Of a DNA stretch of 55,173 nt, positions 31,049 to 53,878 are shown piece by piece. This DNA is from Oscillospiraceae bacterium. GTDB taxonomy: Bacteria; Bacillota; Clostridia; Oscillospirales; Ruminococcaceae. The notes beneath the pieces are model-generated. The model worked only from the letters and a program-made list of their open reading frames with translations, was not told where the DNA came from and did not search any database. Both the position numbers and the translations under genes were made by a program. How positions within the stretch are numbered: position 1 is the stretch's first letter; each line of letters begins with the position of its first letter. The stretch is taken from the NCBI GenBank assembly GCA_031253495.1, contig JAIRWC010000013.1:1-55173 (forward strand), given 5' to 3'.

Positions 31049-31447
31049 ATGAATATTGCTCTTATTGCGCACGATTCAAAAAAAGAATTGATGGTGCAGT
31101 TTTGTATCGCTTATTACGGGGTGTTAAGCCAAAATAACCTTTGCGCGACCGGCACGACGGGCAAACTTGTGGCGGAGGCTACGGGTCTGCATATTCAGCG
31201 GTATTTAAGCGGCTCGCACGGCGGCGGCGAACAGATAATATCAAGGATTTCCTGCAACGAGATAGACGTGCTGTTTTTTTTCCGCGACCCGCTCAACGCG
31301 AAATCCAACGAACCCAACGACATGAGCATACTTCGCGTTTGCGATATGCACACAATTCCCGTCGCGACAAACATAGCGACGGGTGAAGCTCTTATTCACG
31401 CGCTCGAACGCGGCGATTTGGACTGGCGGGAAATAGTAAGATATTAG
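31049..31447 (+). CDS. mgsA: methylglyoxal synthase
   Basis: The 132-residue enzyme converts dihydroxyacetone phosphate to methylglyoxal, a bypass when phosphate is short. It shows the motifs ALIAHDSKK, ATGTTG, SGSHGGGEQI and FFRDPL, with the catalytic Asp in the last. It is 20 bp after the MinD-like gene. The stop codon is followed directly by repeat copy B. Confidence 0.95.
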   Translation: MNIALIAHDSKKELMVQFCIAYYGVLSQNNLCATGTTGKLVAEATGLHIQRYLSGSHGGGEQIISRISCNEIDVLFFFRDPLNAKSNEPNDMSILRVCDMHTIPVATNIATGEALIHALERGDLDWREIVRY

Positions 31448-31485
31448 ACCGCCCCGTAAACTGCGTCGCGGCGGTTTTGCGGTTG
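31448..31485 (+). repeat. dispersed repeat, copy B (after mgsA)
   Basis: Beginning at the first base after the mgsA stop, this stretch matches the left end of the MITE at 51456. In particular 25 of 26 bases agree over the segment ending GCGGCGGTTTTGCGGTTG. It can form an ACCGCC/GGCGGT stem followed by TTTT and may serve as an mgsA terminator. No right end is recognisable, so it is partial. Confidence 0.75.
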
Positions 31486-35085: not shown

Positions 35086-35159
35086 TATAGCAATTCCGCT
35101 TGACGTTGAAATAAATTCAACGTCGGCGGCCGCCGCCGCGATACGGTTTCCGGGGAGGT
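35086..35159 (-). repeat. dispersed repeat, copy C (between PPIase genes)
   Basis: Read on the minus strand it begins four bases after the stop of the upstream gene with ACCTCCCCGGAAACCGTATC, matching the left end of the MITE at 51456. It continues with the same GC palindrome and hairpin as copy D (ACGTTGAA, TTTAT, TTCAACGT). It ends about 20 bp before the next start codon. Confidence 0.85.
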
Positions 35160-35162
35160 CCG

Positions 35163-35897
35163 TCAATAGTATTCAAGCTCAATCTTTTCTATGACAATAT
35201 CCTCGGCGGGTCTGTAGGTTTCGCCGTCAACCACCTCGGCGGCGCAAATAGCCTCGACCACTTCCATTCCCTCGATTGTTTGCCCGTAAACGGTATAACT
35301 CCCCGAAAAACCGATTACGCCCCCGAATTCGGCGAAAGCGTACAGCAGTTCGTCGGGCAGCAGCCGCTCGCCGTCCCTTTCAACTTCTTTCAAAGCCTCG
35401 ATTTCTTCTTCGCCGAAGTCGTCGGCGTTCACTATGAAAAATCTGCCGTCGCTCTCGCCTTCTTTGTCGCCGCAGGATAAAAGCGCGCCTTTAAAGGGCC
35501 AAAGGTTGACGGAATATTCGTTCGCCACGGGGTTCCCGTCCGCCGTCCTGCCGCCGTTGCCGGTCTCCTCGTTTTCCACCCCGGACAGGAAATACAACCC
35601 CTCCATCACGACCAAAACCTTTTTCCCGTCATAATAACCCTCCCCGATTAAATCGGTGAAGTTTTTGACCGTGTTGGGGGCGTATTCCGGATAAAGAGCG
35701 GTCTTGAACACCCCGAGGGAGGTGGTTATAACCGCCACCGGCTGCCCCGCGTAGGGTTCCTCAAGCTGGACCAACCGCATTTCGCCGTAATCGTAATCCT
35801 TAATCGCTATCCTTTTCTCGCTTACGGAACCGCACCCCGCCGCGAGGGACGCCGTTGCCGCCAAGAAAAACGCGGCGGCGCTGATTTTATTTTTCAA
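35163..35897 (-). CDS. cyclophilin-like lipoprotein lacking catalytic residues
   Basis: The 244-residue protein has a lipoprotein signal (lipobox LAAGC) and the overall cyclophilin layout (VITTSLGVFKTALYPEYAPNTVKNF, YGQTIEGMEVVEAI) of its downstream paralogue. Where that protein has FHRV and a Gln, this one reads VLVV and Leu, so the catalytic Phe, Arg and Gln are missing. It is probably a pseudo-isomerase acting as a binding protein. It uses a TTG start at 35897 with AAAGGTG upstream. Confidence 0.78.
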   Translation of the reverse strand: MKNKISAAAFFLAATASLAAGCGSVSEKRIAIKDYDYGEMRLVQLEEPYAGQPVAVITTSLGVFKTALYPEYAPNTVKNFTDLIGEGYYDGKKVLVVMEGLYFLSGVENEETGNGGRTADGNPVANEYSVNLWPFKGALLSCGDKEGESDGRFFIVNADDFGEEEIEALKEVERDGERLLPDELLYAFAEFGGVIGFSGSYTVYGQTIEGMEVVEAICAAEVVDGETYRPAEDIVIEKIELEYY

Positions 35898-48609: not shown

Positions 48610-51594
48610 TTACAAGAATTTTTTTAGGGTTTTCATTACCGCGTCTATATCAATCGGTTTCGCGAGGTGAGAGTTCATCCCCGCTTCAATGGCGCGCCGA
48701 ACGTCCTCGTTATACGCGTTGGCGGTCATCGCCACAATCGGAACGCTCGCCGCGTCGCCCCGTTTCAGCTTTCTTATCTCCCTGACGGCCTCATAACCGT
48801 CCATAACCGGCATTTGAATATCCATCAATATCAAATTATAATACCCATTCGCCGACTTGCCGAACATTTCCACGGCCTTTTCCCCGTTTTCGGCTTCGTC
48901 TATAACCATTCCCGTTTCGGACAAAAGCTCTTTTATTATGAACCTGTTAATCTCTATATCCTCCGCGAGCAGTATCCTGCTGCCGCTGAAGTCCGCGTTC
49001 CCGTTCTGCTCCCGAACGCTTTCCTCCGCCCGGCCTTTCGGGAACATCAGTTCAAAATAAAACTTCGTCCCTTTTCCGGGGGCGCTTTCAACCTTTATTT
49101 CACCCCCCATCATTTTTATAAGGTTCTGGCTGATTGAAAGCCCCAACCCCGTCCCCCCGAAACGCGACGCGATTGTCGCGTCCGCCTGCTCGAAAGGTTG
49201 AAACAGCCGCCGACGCTGTTCTTCCGTCATACCTATGCCGTTGTCGGAAATTTCAAAACGGGCGTTGATTTCACCGTCGGATTCCCCGAAAATCTTGATG
49301 CTCAAAACCACCTCGCCGCCCTGTTCGGTGAATTTGACGGCGTTGCCGAGCAGATTGATTAAAACTTGGTTGACCCTTAATTTATCGCCGACGACCGTCA
49401 TGTCGTCGCGCCCGTTTATATCGCAGGTGAATTTGATGTTTTTTTCAAGGCAGCGCTGCGATATAATGCCGTAAACCTCGTTATAGGCTTCCATGACGGA
49501 GAAAGGCTCGCGCGTGATTTCCAGCTTCCCTGACTCAATTTTGGACATATCCAAAATATCGTTTATAATTCCCAGCAGATGCCGCGACGAAAAAATTATC
49601 CTGTTGACGGACGACAGGGCTTTCGCGTTATCCGAAACGCTTTTCTTGGCGACTTCCGACATTCCTATTATGGCGTTTAACGGCGTCCTTATTTCGTGGC
49701 TCATACGCGCCAAAAATTCGCCCTTCGCTTTGGAGGCTATCCTCGCCTCGTTCGTTTGGCGGGCGAGATTTTTGCTTAAACGTCTGGAATTTATAAACAT
49801 TATCACGACTGCTATCAGCGTCGCGAACAGTATCACGGAAAACGTCATCAGATAATCGGCGCGAATGTTCGCTAACTTCGTCGAATAGTCGAAAACGCGC
49901 GCCGTCCAGTTTTTCACTATGTTTTCGGTGTTCAGGCAGGCGAGCGTTTTGTTTACGATTGAGCGCAACTCGGTTTCATTTTTGCCGAAGCCGTACATGG
50001 AGCGACATTCCGTGCTGAAAACGTAGTTTACTTTATAGTCCGGTTTTTCAAGATAATTCGTCTGCGTGTACAGCGTCAACTCGGAAGCCATGAGCAGGTC
50101 GATTTCACCTTTTTCCAACGCCGCCAGCGCTTCAAACTGCGTGGGGTAAACGGTCAAATTGTCGCTGTCGTAGAACCATTCCCTGTATTTGCTCTCATAA
50201 ATCGAATCCTTCATCACCCCCACCTTCGCCCTGACTATCTGCCTCGGAGTAACCTCCGGGTAATCGAATTCGGACAAAAGCGCGTAACGCGACGTTACGT
50301 TCGGTATATCGGGCCAAATAAAGTCGTCCGCCCGCTTTTCGGAATACACAAGCTCCGAAACCATTGAAATTTCACCGCTCAAAAGCCGCTCGTATATGTC
50401 GTTCCACTCGTCGTCCCTGCCGGTAACGATTTCAAACTCCAGACCCGTCATGTCCTCGATTTCACGGAGAATATCAATGGCGATACCCTCGAACTTCCCC
50501 GTGTTGCCGTTGTAAAAGCTGACGGGATAATTGTCCGCTTCGGCGGCGAAAGCGATTTTACGCCGCGGTTCCTCGCCGAAACGCGCGATGTAAGCCCTTT
50601 CTTCGCCGGAGAAGGTTTTATTCAGTTTATACTTGACGTATTCGCGGTCGCCGGCGTTATAAATCTCATAAAGCAGGTCTATGCCGCCCGCTTCGATATA
50701 TTTGTTTAAAGCGTTTATTATCGGCTCCAACTCGCCGTTGGCGGCGGACATCGAAACGGGCGAGTATACGAGCGGGAACAGCTTTTTCGACACGACGCCG
50801 TATTCCTCGAAAAAGGCTTCCAAAACCGATTCTTCAATAAAAGCGTCGACTTCGCCCCCGATGAGCATTTCCAAAGCGTCGCCCTCGTCGTCGACCTCGA
50901 CGGTTTCGTAACTCGCGGCGTAAATTCTCTTAATCGCGGCGTCCGACACCGAACCTTTCATAAACGCGATTTTCAGCCCGTTTACGTCGCTTTCGGATTT
51001 AATTCCGCTGTCCGGCATAGTGAAAACCAAAAGCGAGCGTTCCGCTATGGCGAGCGACATGGAATACAATTCCAGCCTTTCCGGCGTAACGGAAAGGTCG
51101 CCGATAAAATCGACGGCGAAGCTGTCGAAAGACGTTTTCAAATCGCTCCACGACTCATGGTATTCCGGAATAAAGCCAATCCCGAAAAGCTCCGTCAGCA
51201 ATTCGCAAAACCTGTAAGTAAAGCCCGCGTACGTTCCGTCCGGCGAAACGAACGCTTCCGTGGTGAGAATATGCCCGTAAGAAAAGCCTTTCCCCGCCCG
51301 GCTCTCTTTAAGCGCTTCAATTTCCGCTATTTCAGCTTCGGTTATTCCGGGGATTTGGGTGTAATACGTCATGCCGCCCGGCTTTGTTCCCGCCGAGCCG
51401 CCGCATGCCGAAACGACCGACGCTATTATCGCCGGCAATAAAAGGATTGATATTAAACCTCTTCGGAAACTGTGTCGCGGCGGTTTTGCGGTTGATTTTC
51501 CGCCGCGCCGCGTCAAAATTTCCTTGTCTGACGAAAAATCCGTCCGCAACCCCGCTCGCGCACGGTTTCCGAGGAGGTTTATTATTCTTCCCAT
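48610..51594 (-). CDS. hybrid histidine kinase with two solute-binding sensor domains
   Basis: The 994-residue protein has a lipoprotein-type signal (VVSAC; Cys64), two periplasmic-binding (SBP_bac_3) domains, one membrane helix (YLMTFSVILFATLIAVVIMF), a HisKA domain with H-box MSHEIRTPLNAIIG, an HATPase with LINLLGNAVKF, DNGIGM and GGTGLGLSI, and a C-terminal receiver (AEDIEINR, LMDIQMPVMDG, HLAKP). The layout is EvgS/BvgS-like, sensing small ligands such as amino acids. The ATG at 51594 has AAGGAG nine bases upstream. Residues 6-48 derive from a MITE inserted in frame into the signal peptide; without it Cys64 would be Cys21. Confidence 0.9.
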   Translation of the reverse strand: MGRIINLLGNRARAGLRTDFSSDKEILTRRGGKSTAKPPRHSFRRGLISILLLPAIIASVVSACGGSAGTKPGGMTYYTQIPGITEAEIAEIEALKESRAGKGFSYGHILTTEAFVSPDGTYAGFTYRFCELLTELFGIGFIPEYHESWSDLKTSFDSFAVDFIGDLSVTPERLELYSMSLAIAERSLLVFTMPDSGIKSESDVNGLKIAFMKGSVSDAAIKRIYAASYETVEVDDEGDALEMLIGGEVDAFIEESVLEAFFEEYGVVSKKLFPLVYSPVSMSAANGELEPIINALNKYIEAGGIDLLYEIYNAGDREYVKYKLNKTFSGEERAYIARFGEEPRRKIAFAAEADNYPVSFYNGNTGKFEGIAIDILREIEDMTGLEFEIVTGRDDEWNDIYERLLSGEISMVSELVYSEKRADDFIWPDIPNVTSRYALLSEFDYPEVTPRQIVRAKVGVMKDSIYESKYREWFYDSDNLTVYPTQFEALAALEKGEIDLLMASELTLYTQTNYLEKPDYKVNYVFSTECRSMYGFGKNETELRSIVNKTLACLNTENIVKNWTARVFDYSTKLANIRADYLMTFSVILFATLIAVVIMFINSRRLSKNLARQTNEARIASKAKGEFLARMSHEIRTPLNAIIGMSEVAKKSVSDNAKALSSVNRIIFSSRHLLGIINDILDMSKIESGKLEITREPFSVMEAYNEVYGIISQRCLEKNIKFTCDINGRDDMTVVGDKLRVNQVLINLLGNAVKFTEQGGEVVLSIKIFGESDGEINARFEISDNGIGMTEEQRRRLFQPFEQADATIASRFGGTGLGLSISQNLIKMMGGEIKVESAPGKGTKFYFELMFPKGRAEESVREQNGNADFSGSRILLAEDIEINRFIIKELLSETGMVIDEAENGEKAVEMFGKSANGYYNLILMDIQMPVMDGYEAVREIRKLKRGDAASVPIVAMTANAYNEDVRRAIEAGMNSHLAKPIDIDAVMKTLKKFL
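51451..51584. mobile_element. MITE-like element, copy A, with target duplication
   Basis: A 124 bp element (51456-51579) begins AACCTCTTCGGAAACTGTG and ends with the inverted copy (CACGGTTTCCGAGGAGGTT), 17 of 19 terminal bases matching. It is flanked by 5 bp direct repeats TATTA (51451-51455 and 51580-51584). The inverted similarity continues imperfectly inward (GCGGTTTTGCGG vs GCGGGGTTGCGG). No transposase is encoded. Element plus duplication is 129 bp, exactly 43 codons, so the host frame is kept. Confidence 0.88.
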
Positions 51595-51607
51595 AAACAG
51601 CCGCTCC

Positions 51608-53878
51608 TTATTCAACCGTGAAACTCCTCAAAAGTTTCGCGTCGGACGTCAGCGATTTTATCGCGTCGTCCCAAAAGGCGTAGACATACCCTTCCGAAAT
51701 AACCGCCGACAAGGTATCCGAAAAGCTGTCCACGTCCACCCTGCTGCCTTTCGTTTCAAAGCCCCGTTCGGCGTCGTAACCGAGTATGACGAATTTTTCA
51801 ATCCTTACTATTCCGTTAAAATCTATAATCGGGACGACGATTATGCCCGAGTCCGCGTTTGCCGCGACAGCCCCGCGCGAGTGTTCCGCCGGAGTTTTCA
51901 TATATTCGCCGTATTCCGCGATTGACGGCGCTATCAGAACCGCCGCGGCTTCGACGGGGGCGCCCGTTTCCCGATAATCGTACATCGTAACGCGGACGCC
52001 GCGCCTGTTTCCTTCGTCGTCCGCCTCGACGCTTACGGAAAAGAACGAGTTTTCCCCCCAACCGTAATAGTATTCCGCGGAAATCAGCGAGTCCGTCTCG
52101 TCCAAAAATCTCGGCTCGCCCGGCGCCGACGTGTCAATCACATAAAGCTGTTCGGCGATTATATAAGCCCTGTTCTTGTCGAAAGCCGCGCCTTTCGGGG
52201 TTTCCCCCGCCGCTATTTTTTCCACGCTGACGGGCTTGGCGTTGCTTTCAAAGATATGCAGCGTTACCGATTGCCCCTTGTCTTCCCCCGTAATCGCCGC
52301 CAAGCGCAAAACGCCGTTCCTGTCGTCAACGAAGCCCTCGGGAACCGAGCCTTTAACCTTAAACGAGGCGGGCGCGCTCAAATTGGTTTCATAAACGCCG
52401 TATCTGACCGCCTCGGCTTCGCCGCCGCCGTTATATACCAGCAAAAGCGAGTTTTCGCCCTCGTAGACGAAATTCGCGGAACCGCCCGTCGCCGCGCAGG
52501 CGAAAGCCGTTTCGCACGCCGCGTCCGCGCCGCCTATCACGGTCATGTTTGAATAAGGCGGTTCACGCATGAGAATATTTTCCAACGACACCCAGCTCCT
52601 TTGGCTGTTTAAGCGATAAGCGGGTATGTAACCGTCGTATTTTCCGTCGTAAACGTCGTTGCTTACGGCGTAATCCGTAATCAAAAAGAAATTGCCCGCG
52701 CGTATTATTATGTCAAAAAACTCGCCGTCTTGCGTATATTCGGCAATCGGCGTGGCGTTCCAGCTCATCGCGTCAAAAACGGCGACGGTTACGCAAGGCT
52801 GCGGGAATTTAAACGTTTTCGCGGCGTTTGCGCGGTCTGTTTCGCCGTCTTCCCCCGTTTCGCTTTCGGTTTGATACTCGAAGCTGATTTCATACTCGCC
52901 CGAATAAACGGCGAACAGCCTTTCCTTCAGCAGGAAAACGCCTATCAACTCCATATCGTTTCTTTCATACCCGGGGGCGGCGTACATTTCCCCGCCCGAT
53001 ATTTTTACGGCGTTAACCGCGTTTCCTCTTGTTTTGAAAATATATTCGGAGTTAGAGCAAAGGGAAACCGGTTTTTGCCCGCCGCCGGAAAACTTTTCCG
53101 CCCTATAGACCCTTTCCGCCGGAACGCGCTCGGCTTGCCCCGCGCCCCGCCCCGCCTGAACAGCGAAAAGCGCCTCGTAACTCCCCGCGGGGGTCAACCC
53201 GTTAACGGGCAAAAACCAATCCCCCGTCAAAACGAAACGGATAAAAAAACTCGCGAACACCAAAACCGCGCCCGATATAAGGCATATTACCCTCTTCGCC
53301 ATATTTTCGCGCGGGGCGTTTGCGTCAAAGTCCTCGCTCCCGCCGTATTCGCCGTATTCCTCGGCGTAGTCGCCGGAGTTATAATCGCCGTATTCGGTCG
53401 GCTCGTCCCCCCACAGGTCGTCGTAACCCGCTTCTTCCGGGGACGTTTCTTCCGGGGCGTCCGACAGGGTTATTTCCTCGGTAACGCCGTCGCCCGTATC
53501 CCGCGCGGTTTTCGCGCCCGCCGCCGCGTTATCCGAAAGCGGCGCGCCGTCGGAGCTTTTGGACGCGATAATCGCGTTCAAATCCTTTTCCAAAGCGGCG
53601 CGTTTCCTGAACAGCTCACGTTTTTCACGCCTTTCCCGCGAGGTTTTGAGCAGGGCGGCGTAATCCTCGCCCGTCAGCGGGGAAGCTTCCAGTATTGCCA
53701 CAAGACGGGCGTAAGTGAGACCGGGGTTGTCTTTTATTTCGGCGTAGCTTTCATTGCTTATTCCGGTGTGCCCGATGAGCGCGAGAAACTCCCGCCCCGA
53801 AAGGCGTTCTTTCTTTATCTCCGCGAGAAACCCCGCGGCGGTTAACCCGGTTTTAGACGCGCTGTCTGCTGATGCCAT
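51608..53878 (-). CDS. membrane-anchored protein with large extracytoplasmic beta-rich domain
   Basis: The 756-residue protein has a charged helical N-terminal part (about 1-110), an acidic Asp/Glu/Tyr-rich linker (about 120-195, EYGDYNSGDYAEEYGEYGG-type), one membrane helix (about 200-222) and about 530 residues of extracytoplasmic sequence with repeated short strands. That suggests a beta-propeller, but I do not recognise a family. The start is the ATG at 53878 after CGGAGA. It sits 13 bp before the hybrid kinase gene and may work with that sensor. Confidence 0.65.
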   Translation of the reverse strand: MASADSASKTGLTAAGFLAEIKKERLSGREFLALIGHTGISNESYAEIKDNPGLTYARLVAILEASPLTGEDYAALLKTSRERREKRELFRKRAALEKDLNAIIASKSSDGAPLSDNAAAGAKTARDTGDGVTEEITLSDAPEETSPEEAGYDDLWGDEPTEYGDYNSGDYAEEYGEYGGSEDFDANAPRENMAKRVICLISGAVLVFASFFIRFVLTGDWFLPVNGLTPAGSYEALFAVQAGRGAGQAERVPAERVYRAEKFSGGGQKPVSLCSNSEYIFKTRGNAVNAVKISGGEMYAAPGYERNDMELIGVFLLKERLFAVYSGEYEISFEYQTESETGEDGETDRANAAKTFKFPQPCVTVAVFDAMSWNATPIAEYTQDGEFFDIIIRAGNFFLITDYAVSNDVYDGKYDGYIPAYRLNSQRSWVSLENILMREPPYSNMTVIGGADAACETAFACAATGGSANFVYEGENSLLLVYNGGGEAEAVRYGVYETNLSAPASFKVKGSVPEGFVDDRNGVLRLAAITGEDKGQSVTLHIFESNAKPVSVEKIAAGETPKGAAFDKNRAYIIAEQLYVIDTSAPGEPRFLDETDSLISAEYYYGWGENSFFSVSVEADDEGNRRGVRVTMYDYRETGAPVEAAAVLIAPSIAEYGEYMKTPAEHSRGAVAANADSGIIVVPIIDFNGIVRIEKFVILGYDAERGFETKGSRVDVDSFSDTLSAVISEGYVYAFWDDAIKSLTSDAKLLRSFTVE

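What the first reader, a model, noticed from the sequence alone, without database searches (positions are those of the whole stretch)
51451..51584. MITE inserted in frame into the signal peptide of a hybrid histidine kinase
A 124 bp element with 19 bp terminal inverted repeats (17/19 matching) is flanked by TATTA duplications. Removing the element and one TATTA joins MGRII directly to SILLLPAIIASVVSAC, a perfect lipoprotein signal peptide with Cys at 21. With the insertion, 43 arginine- and lysine-rich residues precede the hydrophobic core. Since 124 + 5 = 129 = 43 codons and both insert and duplication lack stops in this frame, the kinase survived as one ORF. This is a visible case of a non-autonomous element turned into coding sequence, and it may change the targeting of a sensor kinase.
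Basis: partly seen in the sequence, partly recalled or inferred. Interest (0 to 1): 0.78.

Follow-up and report, generated by a model that had tools for sequence, protein, structure and literature searches.

The report
Mini-transposon inside a kinase signal peptide
A short piece of jumping DNA landed in frame inside the disposable front end of a bacterial sensor kinase, and its relatives seem to carry ready-made ribosome landing sites at their ends that let them sit right in front of genes without silencing them.

Summary
A 124-126 bp palindromic element with near-perfect terminal inverted repeats sits in frame at codons 6-48 of a hybrid histidine kinase. A syntenic orthologue (74% identity, genome G041) lacks those residues and starts with an ordinary lipoprotein signal peptide. 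The ends recur in the host genome (29 sites, control 5). Twenty-nine full copies elsewhere correct the duplication to 3 bp (here ATT). IS5-family transposase pieces bounded by the same ends occur in one relative; no such transposase was found in the host. The 43 residues lie upstream of the lipobox cysteine and should be cleaved off: probably a tolerated insertion, not a new function.

The wider result is more surprising. Read outward, the family's end is a strong Shine-Dalgarno site (GAGGAGGTCT). Of 115 exact ends held here, 14 lie 0-9 nt before the ATG of an ORF of at least 80 codons, against 0 of 74 ends of elements with other arms (p = 0.001; 19 against 2 if GTG/TTG count). polA and secA (host, decayed ends), atpG, ispH and addB (relatives) begin directly after such ends. 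The family appears to bring its own ribosome-binding site. No expression data were available.

The parts
51455..51580 (.).
51455..51474 (+). Terminal inverted repeat, kinase-downstream end; outward on the minus strand it reads CCGAAGAGGTTT (Shine-Dalgarno-like)
51561..51580 (-). Terminal inverted repeat, kinase-upstream end; outward on the plus strand it reads CCGAGGAGGTTT
51452..51454 (.). Target duplication ATT, left copy
51581..51583 (.). Target duplication ATT, right copy
48610..51594 (-). Hybrid histidine kinase ORF (SBP_bac_3 x2, HisKA, HATPase_c, Response_reg), 994 aa; residues 6-48 are insert
51604..51609 (-). Native Shine-Dalgarno AAGGAG of the kinase, 9 nt before its ATG (51592-51594)
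   Evidence: read from sequence
51403..51405 (-). Lipobox cysteine codon (VSAC), residue 64 with the insert and 21 without

Best explanation
An IS5-derived MITE transposed into codon 5-6 of a lipoprotein-anchored hybrid sensor kinase, with a 3 bp ATT duplication. Element plus duplication is 129 bp and has no stop in the kinase frame, so the gene stayed one ORF and gained a 43-residue, Arg/Lys-rich extension of the signal-peptide n-region. Translation most likely still starts at the original ATG from the native AAGGAG. The extended signal peptide (63 residues) is then removed at the lipobox cysteine, so the mature kinase is unchanged; that is why the insertion was tolerated (inferred). The copy belongs to a family whose terminal inverted repeats read outward as Shine-Dalgarno sites (GAGGAGGTCT). 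When such an element lands between the native ribosome-binding site and the start codon, its end takes over initiation, so insertions in front of essential genes survive. The placement is shown; use by ribosomes is inferred.
For: The orthologue with the same neighbours lacks the insert. The ends recur in the host and, as two-ended elements with A-N-T duplications, in 30 loci of named records. In G037, pieces of an IS5-family transposase lie next to the identical end on two contigs (Pfam HTH_Tnp_4 and DDE_Tnp_4 above cut-off; NCBIfam NF033581 matches below its whole-protein cut-off, as expected of fragments). In G041 an IS of the same transposase family, with related ends and an ATT duplication, can be followed from end to end. 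Shine-Dalgarno role: 14 of 115 exact ends have an ATG (ORF at least 80 codons) at 0-9 nt, against 0 of 74 ends of elements that carry other arms without a Shine-Dalgarno motif; at 10-39 nt the figures are 15 of 115 and 15 of 74 (p = 0.0010; p from 0.0003 to 0.0035 over six settings). Eighteen of 20 tested ORFs starting at such ends hit Pfam families above cut-off, several from residue 2-5 (PolA, SecA, AtpG, IspH/LytB, AddB, ROK, M56). Before and after: in G041 the polA ATG appears to overlap the upstream stop codon, while in the host a decayed element lies between the two genes. In G041 an intact element separates AGAGG from the ATG of a sigma factor.
Against: There is no expression, ribosome or protein data. 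No intact autonomous copy was seen: the G037 transposase is in pieces and in more than one frame, and the G041 IS is interrupted by a nested MITE-like stretch. The host has no DDE_Tnp_4 match and no match to the N-terminal piece of the G037 transposase, so the family may be dead there. Most ends (101 of 115) are not at start codons. With GTG and TTG counted as starts, the no-Shine-Dalgarno arms score 1 to 3 of 74 instead of 0. The 0-9 nt window was chosen after seeing examples, and the two sets come from partly different genomes. The host polA and secA ends each differ from the family end at 3 of 14 positions and were not in the exact set. The host sigma-factor orthologue has a different upstream region, so it is not a clean empty site. 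The kinase copy itself does not use its end as a ribosome-binding site at any standard start codon. The anti-Shine-Dalgarno of the host could not be checked (the 16S pattern was not found in the assembly). Only 12 of 31 window ORFs carry a simple Shine-Dalgarno motif (longest-ATG starts, crude). Whether a 63-residue lipoprotein signal peptide is processed is not known.
Confidence: 0.78

Rival explanations
1. The insertion is simply neutral or mildly damaging debris: the extended n-region blocks export, the kinase is on its way to becoming a pseudogene, and nothing was recruited.
For: 43 hydrophilic residues with 11 Arg/Lys precede the hydrophobic core; the host carries many decayed copies; no selection test after insertion was possible.
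Against: The rest of the ORF is intact over 994 codons and four Pfam domains score above cut-off; the native ribosome-binding site and ATG are preserved.
Confidence: 0.3
2. The element end acts as a second ribosome-binding site inside the kinase and starts translation at a near-cognate codon just after the insert (GAAGAGG-TTTA-ATA), restoring a near-ancestral signal peptide.
For: The end reads GAAGAGG four bases before an in-frame ATA; other copies of the family abut start codons.
Against: ATA is a very poor start codon (general knowledge); the first standard in-frame start after the insert (TTG) would cut the signal peptide short.
Confidence: 0.07
3. The enrichment of ends at start codons reflects a target preference for TAATG/TATTA-like sites near starts, and the Shine-Dalgarno likeness is incidental.
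For: Targets are T-A-W-T rich, and TAATG is such a site.
Against: Elements with other arms are at least as common 10-39 nt from ATGs but absent at 0-9 nt, and at several of those sites the sequence between element and ATG carries its own purine-rich motif. Three of 18 ends of other arms that contain a Shine-Dalgarno motif also abut ATGs.
Confidence: 0.15
4. The element is a structured regulatory RNA leader (its stem pairs the Shine-Dalgarno end with the opposite end) rather than a transposon.
For: A strong hairpin covers the ends and would sequester the Shine-Dalgarno site in two-ended copies.
Against: Copies lie within a coding sequence, between genes and at gene ends; duplications flank them; ends match an IS5-type transposon; the downstream genes belong to unrelated families.
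Confidence: 0.04

Closest known systems
Rickettsia palindromic elements (RPE)
   Same: Palindromic repeats of about 150 bp, between genes and in frame inside genes, giving translated inserts (PMC10969869 and PMC2229807, passages read).
   Different: RPEs are described there as inserted in many ORFs with a conserved peptide, and their target duplication is marked unknown; here one clear in-frame full copy, an A-N-T duplication and an IS5-type transposase with the same ends in a relative. Sequence relation to RPEs was not tested.
Yersinia palindromic sequence (YPAL/RU-2) locus YPO1552
   Same: A MITE contributes part of a predicted signal peptide of a putative exported protein (PMC2229807, passage read).
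   Different: There the MITE peptide is rich in hydrophobic residues; here it only lengthens the charged region of an existing lipoprotein signal, and an empty orthologue is known.
IS5-family insertion sequences with HTH_Tnp_4/DDE_Tnp_4 transposase and their MITEs
   Same: Transposase family, short inverted ends, 3 bp A-N-T duplications (that ISL2-like IS5 elements use A-N-T is recalled, not looked up).
   Different: Ends form strong outward Shine-Dalgarno sites that lie at the expected spacing before start codons.
BOX elements of Streptococcus pneumoniae
   Same: Small repeats that overlap gene ends and create ORFs (PMC3049150, passages read).
   Different: The paper notes for three BOX-made ORFs that they lacked good Shine-Dalgarno candidates; the present family carries one at each end.

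Membership tests
MITE of an IS5-family insertion sequence | Short, non-coding, terminal inverted repeats | tested here: met
   126 bp; 17 of 19 matching end bases
MITE of an IS5-family insertion sequence | Target-site duplication | tested here: met
   ATT/ATT in the window; the three bases identical in 21 of 29 full copies
MITE of an IS5-family insertion sequence | Multiple dispersed copies | tested here: met
MITE of an IS5-family insertion sequence | Autonomous partner with the same ends | tested here: inconclusive
   Transposase pieces next to identical ends in G037 and an end-to-end but interrupted IS with related ends in G041; no intact autonomous copy seen, and none in the host
MITE of an IS5-family insertion sequence | Demonstrated transposition | not testable with these tools
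   needs an experiment
Rickettsia palindromic elements | In-frame insertion in protein-coding genes | tested here: met
   kinase; one clear full-length case among the copies examined
Rickettsia palindromic elements | Sequence homology to known RPE families | not tested
   no RPE sequence was compared
Rickettsia palindromic elements | Element-wide conserved open frame | tested here: not met
   12 of 31 full elements have no open frame at all
Bacterial lipoprotein (type II signal peptide) | Hydrophobic core followed by lipobox cysteine | tested here: met
   ISILLLPAIIASVVSAC retained; G041 orthologue similar
Bacterial lipoprotein (type II signal peptide) | Short charged n-region | tested here: not met
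   48 residues precede SILLLPAII because of the insert

The most novel reading that the evidence does not exclude
The terminal inverted repeats of this IS5-type element family double as portable, outward-facing Shine-Dalgarno sites, so the transposon is translation-proof: it can insert between ribosome-binding site and start codon, even of essential genes, and take over initiation. Decayed copies then remain as the only ribosome-binding site of genes such as polA and secA. Where both arms survive, the stem could in addition hide the site and make translation conditional.
Probability: 0.6. Interest if true: 0.78.

Novelty: new variant of a known kind. Interest (0 to 1): 0.6.

Why it matters
MITEs fused in frame to genes are known, but this case has an empty orthologue, a defined duplication and a transposase with the same ends in a relative, and it sits in the one protein segment that is normally discarded. 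The wider pattern suggests how a transposon can avoid harming its host at the level of translation: by carrying a ribosome-binding site in the very repeats its transposase needs. That would explain why copies are found directly in front of essential genes, and it gives a simple, testable route by which mobile DNA rewires translation starts in gut Oscillospiraceae and their relatives.

Tried and rejected
Duplication of 5 bp: rejected in favour of 3 bp, because only 5 of 29 full copies match over five bases while 21 of 29 match over the inner three.

A second full-length in-frame insertion in L002 (polysaccharide deacetylase): the frame is open through the element, but the likely start is the TTG directly after the element end, so it was counted as ribosome-binding-site use, not fusion.

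L017 lipoprotein: its only standard in-frame start lies upstream of the element end, so it may be another element-encoded n-region. It is left as a candidate because the ancestral start is unclear.

Arm loss by selection (one-ended copies freeing the site): unpaired exact ends at 0-9 nt 8 of 48, paired 6 of 72 (before 5 ends were dropped); not clearly different, so not claimed.

Checking the host anti-Shine-Dalgarno failed: the 16S 3'-end pattern was not found in the assembly. The search with the G041 M56 gene found no orthologue in the other five genomes searched, so no empty site.

Dropped rows: 5 exact ends inside long ORFs without a partner (L138, L140, L141, L151, L182); 12 of 60 core-element loci in which no inverted repeat was found, and 4 of the remaining 96 ends too close to a contig end; exact ends with under 300 nt of downstream sequence. 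For Pfam I gave 20 of the 43 ORFs listed, chosen as those at convincing element ends. In the der and Mini-III cases a later ATG could be the true start.

Literature: five searches gave 2, 2, 0, 4 and 9 papers, and I saw none in their listings that ties MITE or IS ends to a Shine-Dalgarno role. Of these only PMC3049150 and PMC6382973 were opened (passages); the others were seen as listings only. PMC10969869 and PMC2229807 came (passages read). PMC3281130 was searched for four terms without a hit. The library lacks most subscription journals.

Full report
Observation. The window reads TATTA, 124 bp, TATTA at 51451-51584. The ends AACCTCTTCGGAAACTGTG and CACGGTTTCCGAGGAGGTT are inverted repeats (17 of 19), and the whole folds as one long hairpin (z -7.7, 0 of 200 shuffles as good). 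Three matches to the end pattern lie in the window against 0.04 expected. The host genome has 29 matches against 5 for the reversed pattern, and 50 BLAST matches at E up to 10, of which 21 have E of 0.001 or less, the window copy included (40 of 59 candidates were scored). Only one other listed copy covers most of the element (C32, 72% identity), so the insertion is not likely to be an assembly join of identical repeats.

The gene. The minus-strand ORF (ATG 51594, end 48610, 994 aa) is a hybrid histidine kinase with SBP_bac_3 stretches, HisKA, HATPase_c and a receiver domain. AAGGAG lies 9 nt before the ATG. The N-terminus reads MGRII-[43 residues]-SILLLPAIIASVVSAC; the insert has 11 K/R and 3 D/E. 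In 71 genomes of the genus the best match outside the host is in G041 (74% identity, aligned from residue 46 on). It lies between the same neighbours and starts MPMKKAVSTLAAAAIITALVSSC. Of seven more distant homologues looked at, five (37-39% identity) show ordinary signal peptides with a lipobox-like motif close to the start, and two a signal-like start without such a motif. So the 43 residues are an insertion in the host lineage.

The element family. A pattern with both ends found 30 loci in named records, among them Oscillospiraceae and Ruminococcus bins. Three contigs of the bin Glo450_bin21 (JAIRWE) have the same lengths as the G041 contigs C17, C43 and C156, so G041 is that bin. That several of these bins come from termite guts is my recollection of the isolate names, not a tool result. 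In the 29 usable copies the duplication is A-N-T, mostly A-W-T (21 of 29 identical), flanked by an A and a T that belong to the element (28 of 29 each). In G037 an IS5-family transposase begins about 70 nt inside an identical end on one contig, and a C-terminal piece finishes at an identical end on another contig; the first stretch is read in more than one frame. In G041 an element of the same transposase family can be followed from end to end: its ends are AGACATCTTGCATAACT and AGACCTCTTGCATAACT, with an ATT duplication, but a MITE-like stretch lies nested in it. So an intact autonomous copy was not seen. The host has no DDE_Tnp_4 match and none to the N-terminal piece. Elements in related genomes share an inner core while their outer arms differ.

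The ends as ribosome-binding sites. Read outward the family end is TTTCCGAGGAGGTCT. Many copies stop just short of a start codon. In the host: polA (GAGGAGGTCTGATG) and secA (GAGGGGGTCTGTTACATG), both with ends 3 of 14 positions away from the family end, and a galactokinase-like gene, an ABC permease and an FtsX-like permease. In relatives: ispH (GAGGAGGTCTAATG), atpG (GAGGAGGTCTCTTATG), addB, an ECF sigma factor, an M56 peptidase, a ROK kinase (GTG), and, less surely, der and a Mini-III-like gene. Pfam confirms 18 of 20 tested ORFs above cut-off, with domains that begin at residue 2-5 in PolA, SecA, AtpG, LytB, AddB, ROK and M56. Where the gap is 7 nt or less, no other ribosome-binding site fits in it. 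Over the exact ends in the loci I held (120, or 115 after dropping 5 inside ORFs), 14 have an ATG of an ORF of at least 80 codons at 0-9 nt and 15 at 10-39 nt. For elements with other arms that lack a Shine-Dalgarno motif the figures are 0 and 15 of 74; for other arms that do have one, 3 and 3 of 18 (p = 0.0010). With GTG and TTG included the first window gives 19 of 115 against 2 of 74; over six settings p runs from 0.0003 to 0.0035. The window was set after seeing examples, the sets come from partly different genomes and copies are not fully independent, so the p-value is a guide only. Shifting the ends by 30 to 150 nt outward gave 4 to 8 ATGs in a window of the same width.

Before and after. 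In G041 the polA start appears to overlap the upstream stop codon; in the host a decayed element lies between the two genes and ends in GAGGAGGTCTG-ATG. In G041 an intact 157 bp element separates GGTAGAGG from the ATG of a sigma factor; the host orthologue (66% identity) has no element there, though its upstream region differs.

Mechanism proposed. Shown: insertion, frame, orthologue, family, duplications, transposase with the same ends in a relative, placement of ends at start codons. Inferred: that translation of the kinase still starts at the old ATG, that the longer signal peptide is cleaved at Cys64 so the mature kinase is unchanged, and that ribosomes use the element ends in front of other genes.

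Known or new. In-frame MITEs are known: RPEs in Rickettsia (PMC10969869 and PMC2229807, passages) and a Yersinia MITE that forms part of a predicted signal peptide (PMC2229807, passage). The kinase insertion is therefore a new case of a known kind. In the listings of five searches of the paper library I saw no paper proposing that MITE or IS ends act as Shine-Dalgarno sites; most subscription journals are not in that library.

Noticed in passing
window 31443-31485 and 35142-35160: Two further partial copies of the element in the window. The one at 35142-35160 begins a few bases after a stop codon of the minus-strand ORF near 35165-35780.
   Followed up: partly
L003 about 1501-1549 (G000 C5:49599-49646): An ORF that looks ankyrin-like by eye runs into the element end and ends in ...AENQPQNRRDTVSEEVRHL*, so the element seems to supply its last residues; read from the sequence, no domain search.
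   Followed up: no
L017 about 1445-1600 (G000 C2): A lipoprotein whose only standard in-frame start lies upstream of an element end, giving MKIMNEFFAGVKPPRYGFRGGLVYSRKSALCGLVIFAALLFFVAGC: a possible second element-derived signal-peptide n-region.
   Followed up: partly
L095, L096, L098, L220-L279: Palindromic elements of related genomes share one inner core but carry at least seven different arm sequences, as if arms were exchanged around a conserved core.
   Followed up: partly
L296 about 1287 onward (G041 C99): A MITE-like stretch with core-like sequence nested inside the IS5-type element.
   Followed up: no
L134 (G006 C2) and L153 (G037 C6): Collapsed 28 bp copies that keep little more than the two ends; in L134 the end is followed by TAATG.
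   Followed up: no
L293 (G010 C8), upstream of secA: A differently armed element end (GCAAGAGGTCTAATAAATG) lies upstream of secA in G010 as well, farther from the start, suggesting repeated hits in the same place.
   Followed up: no
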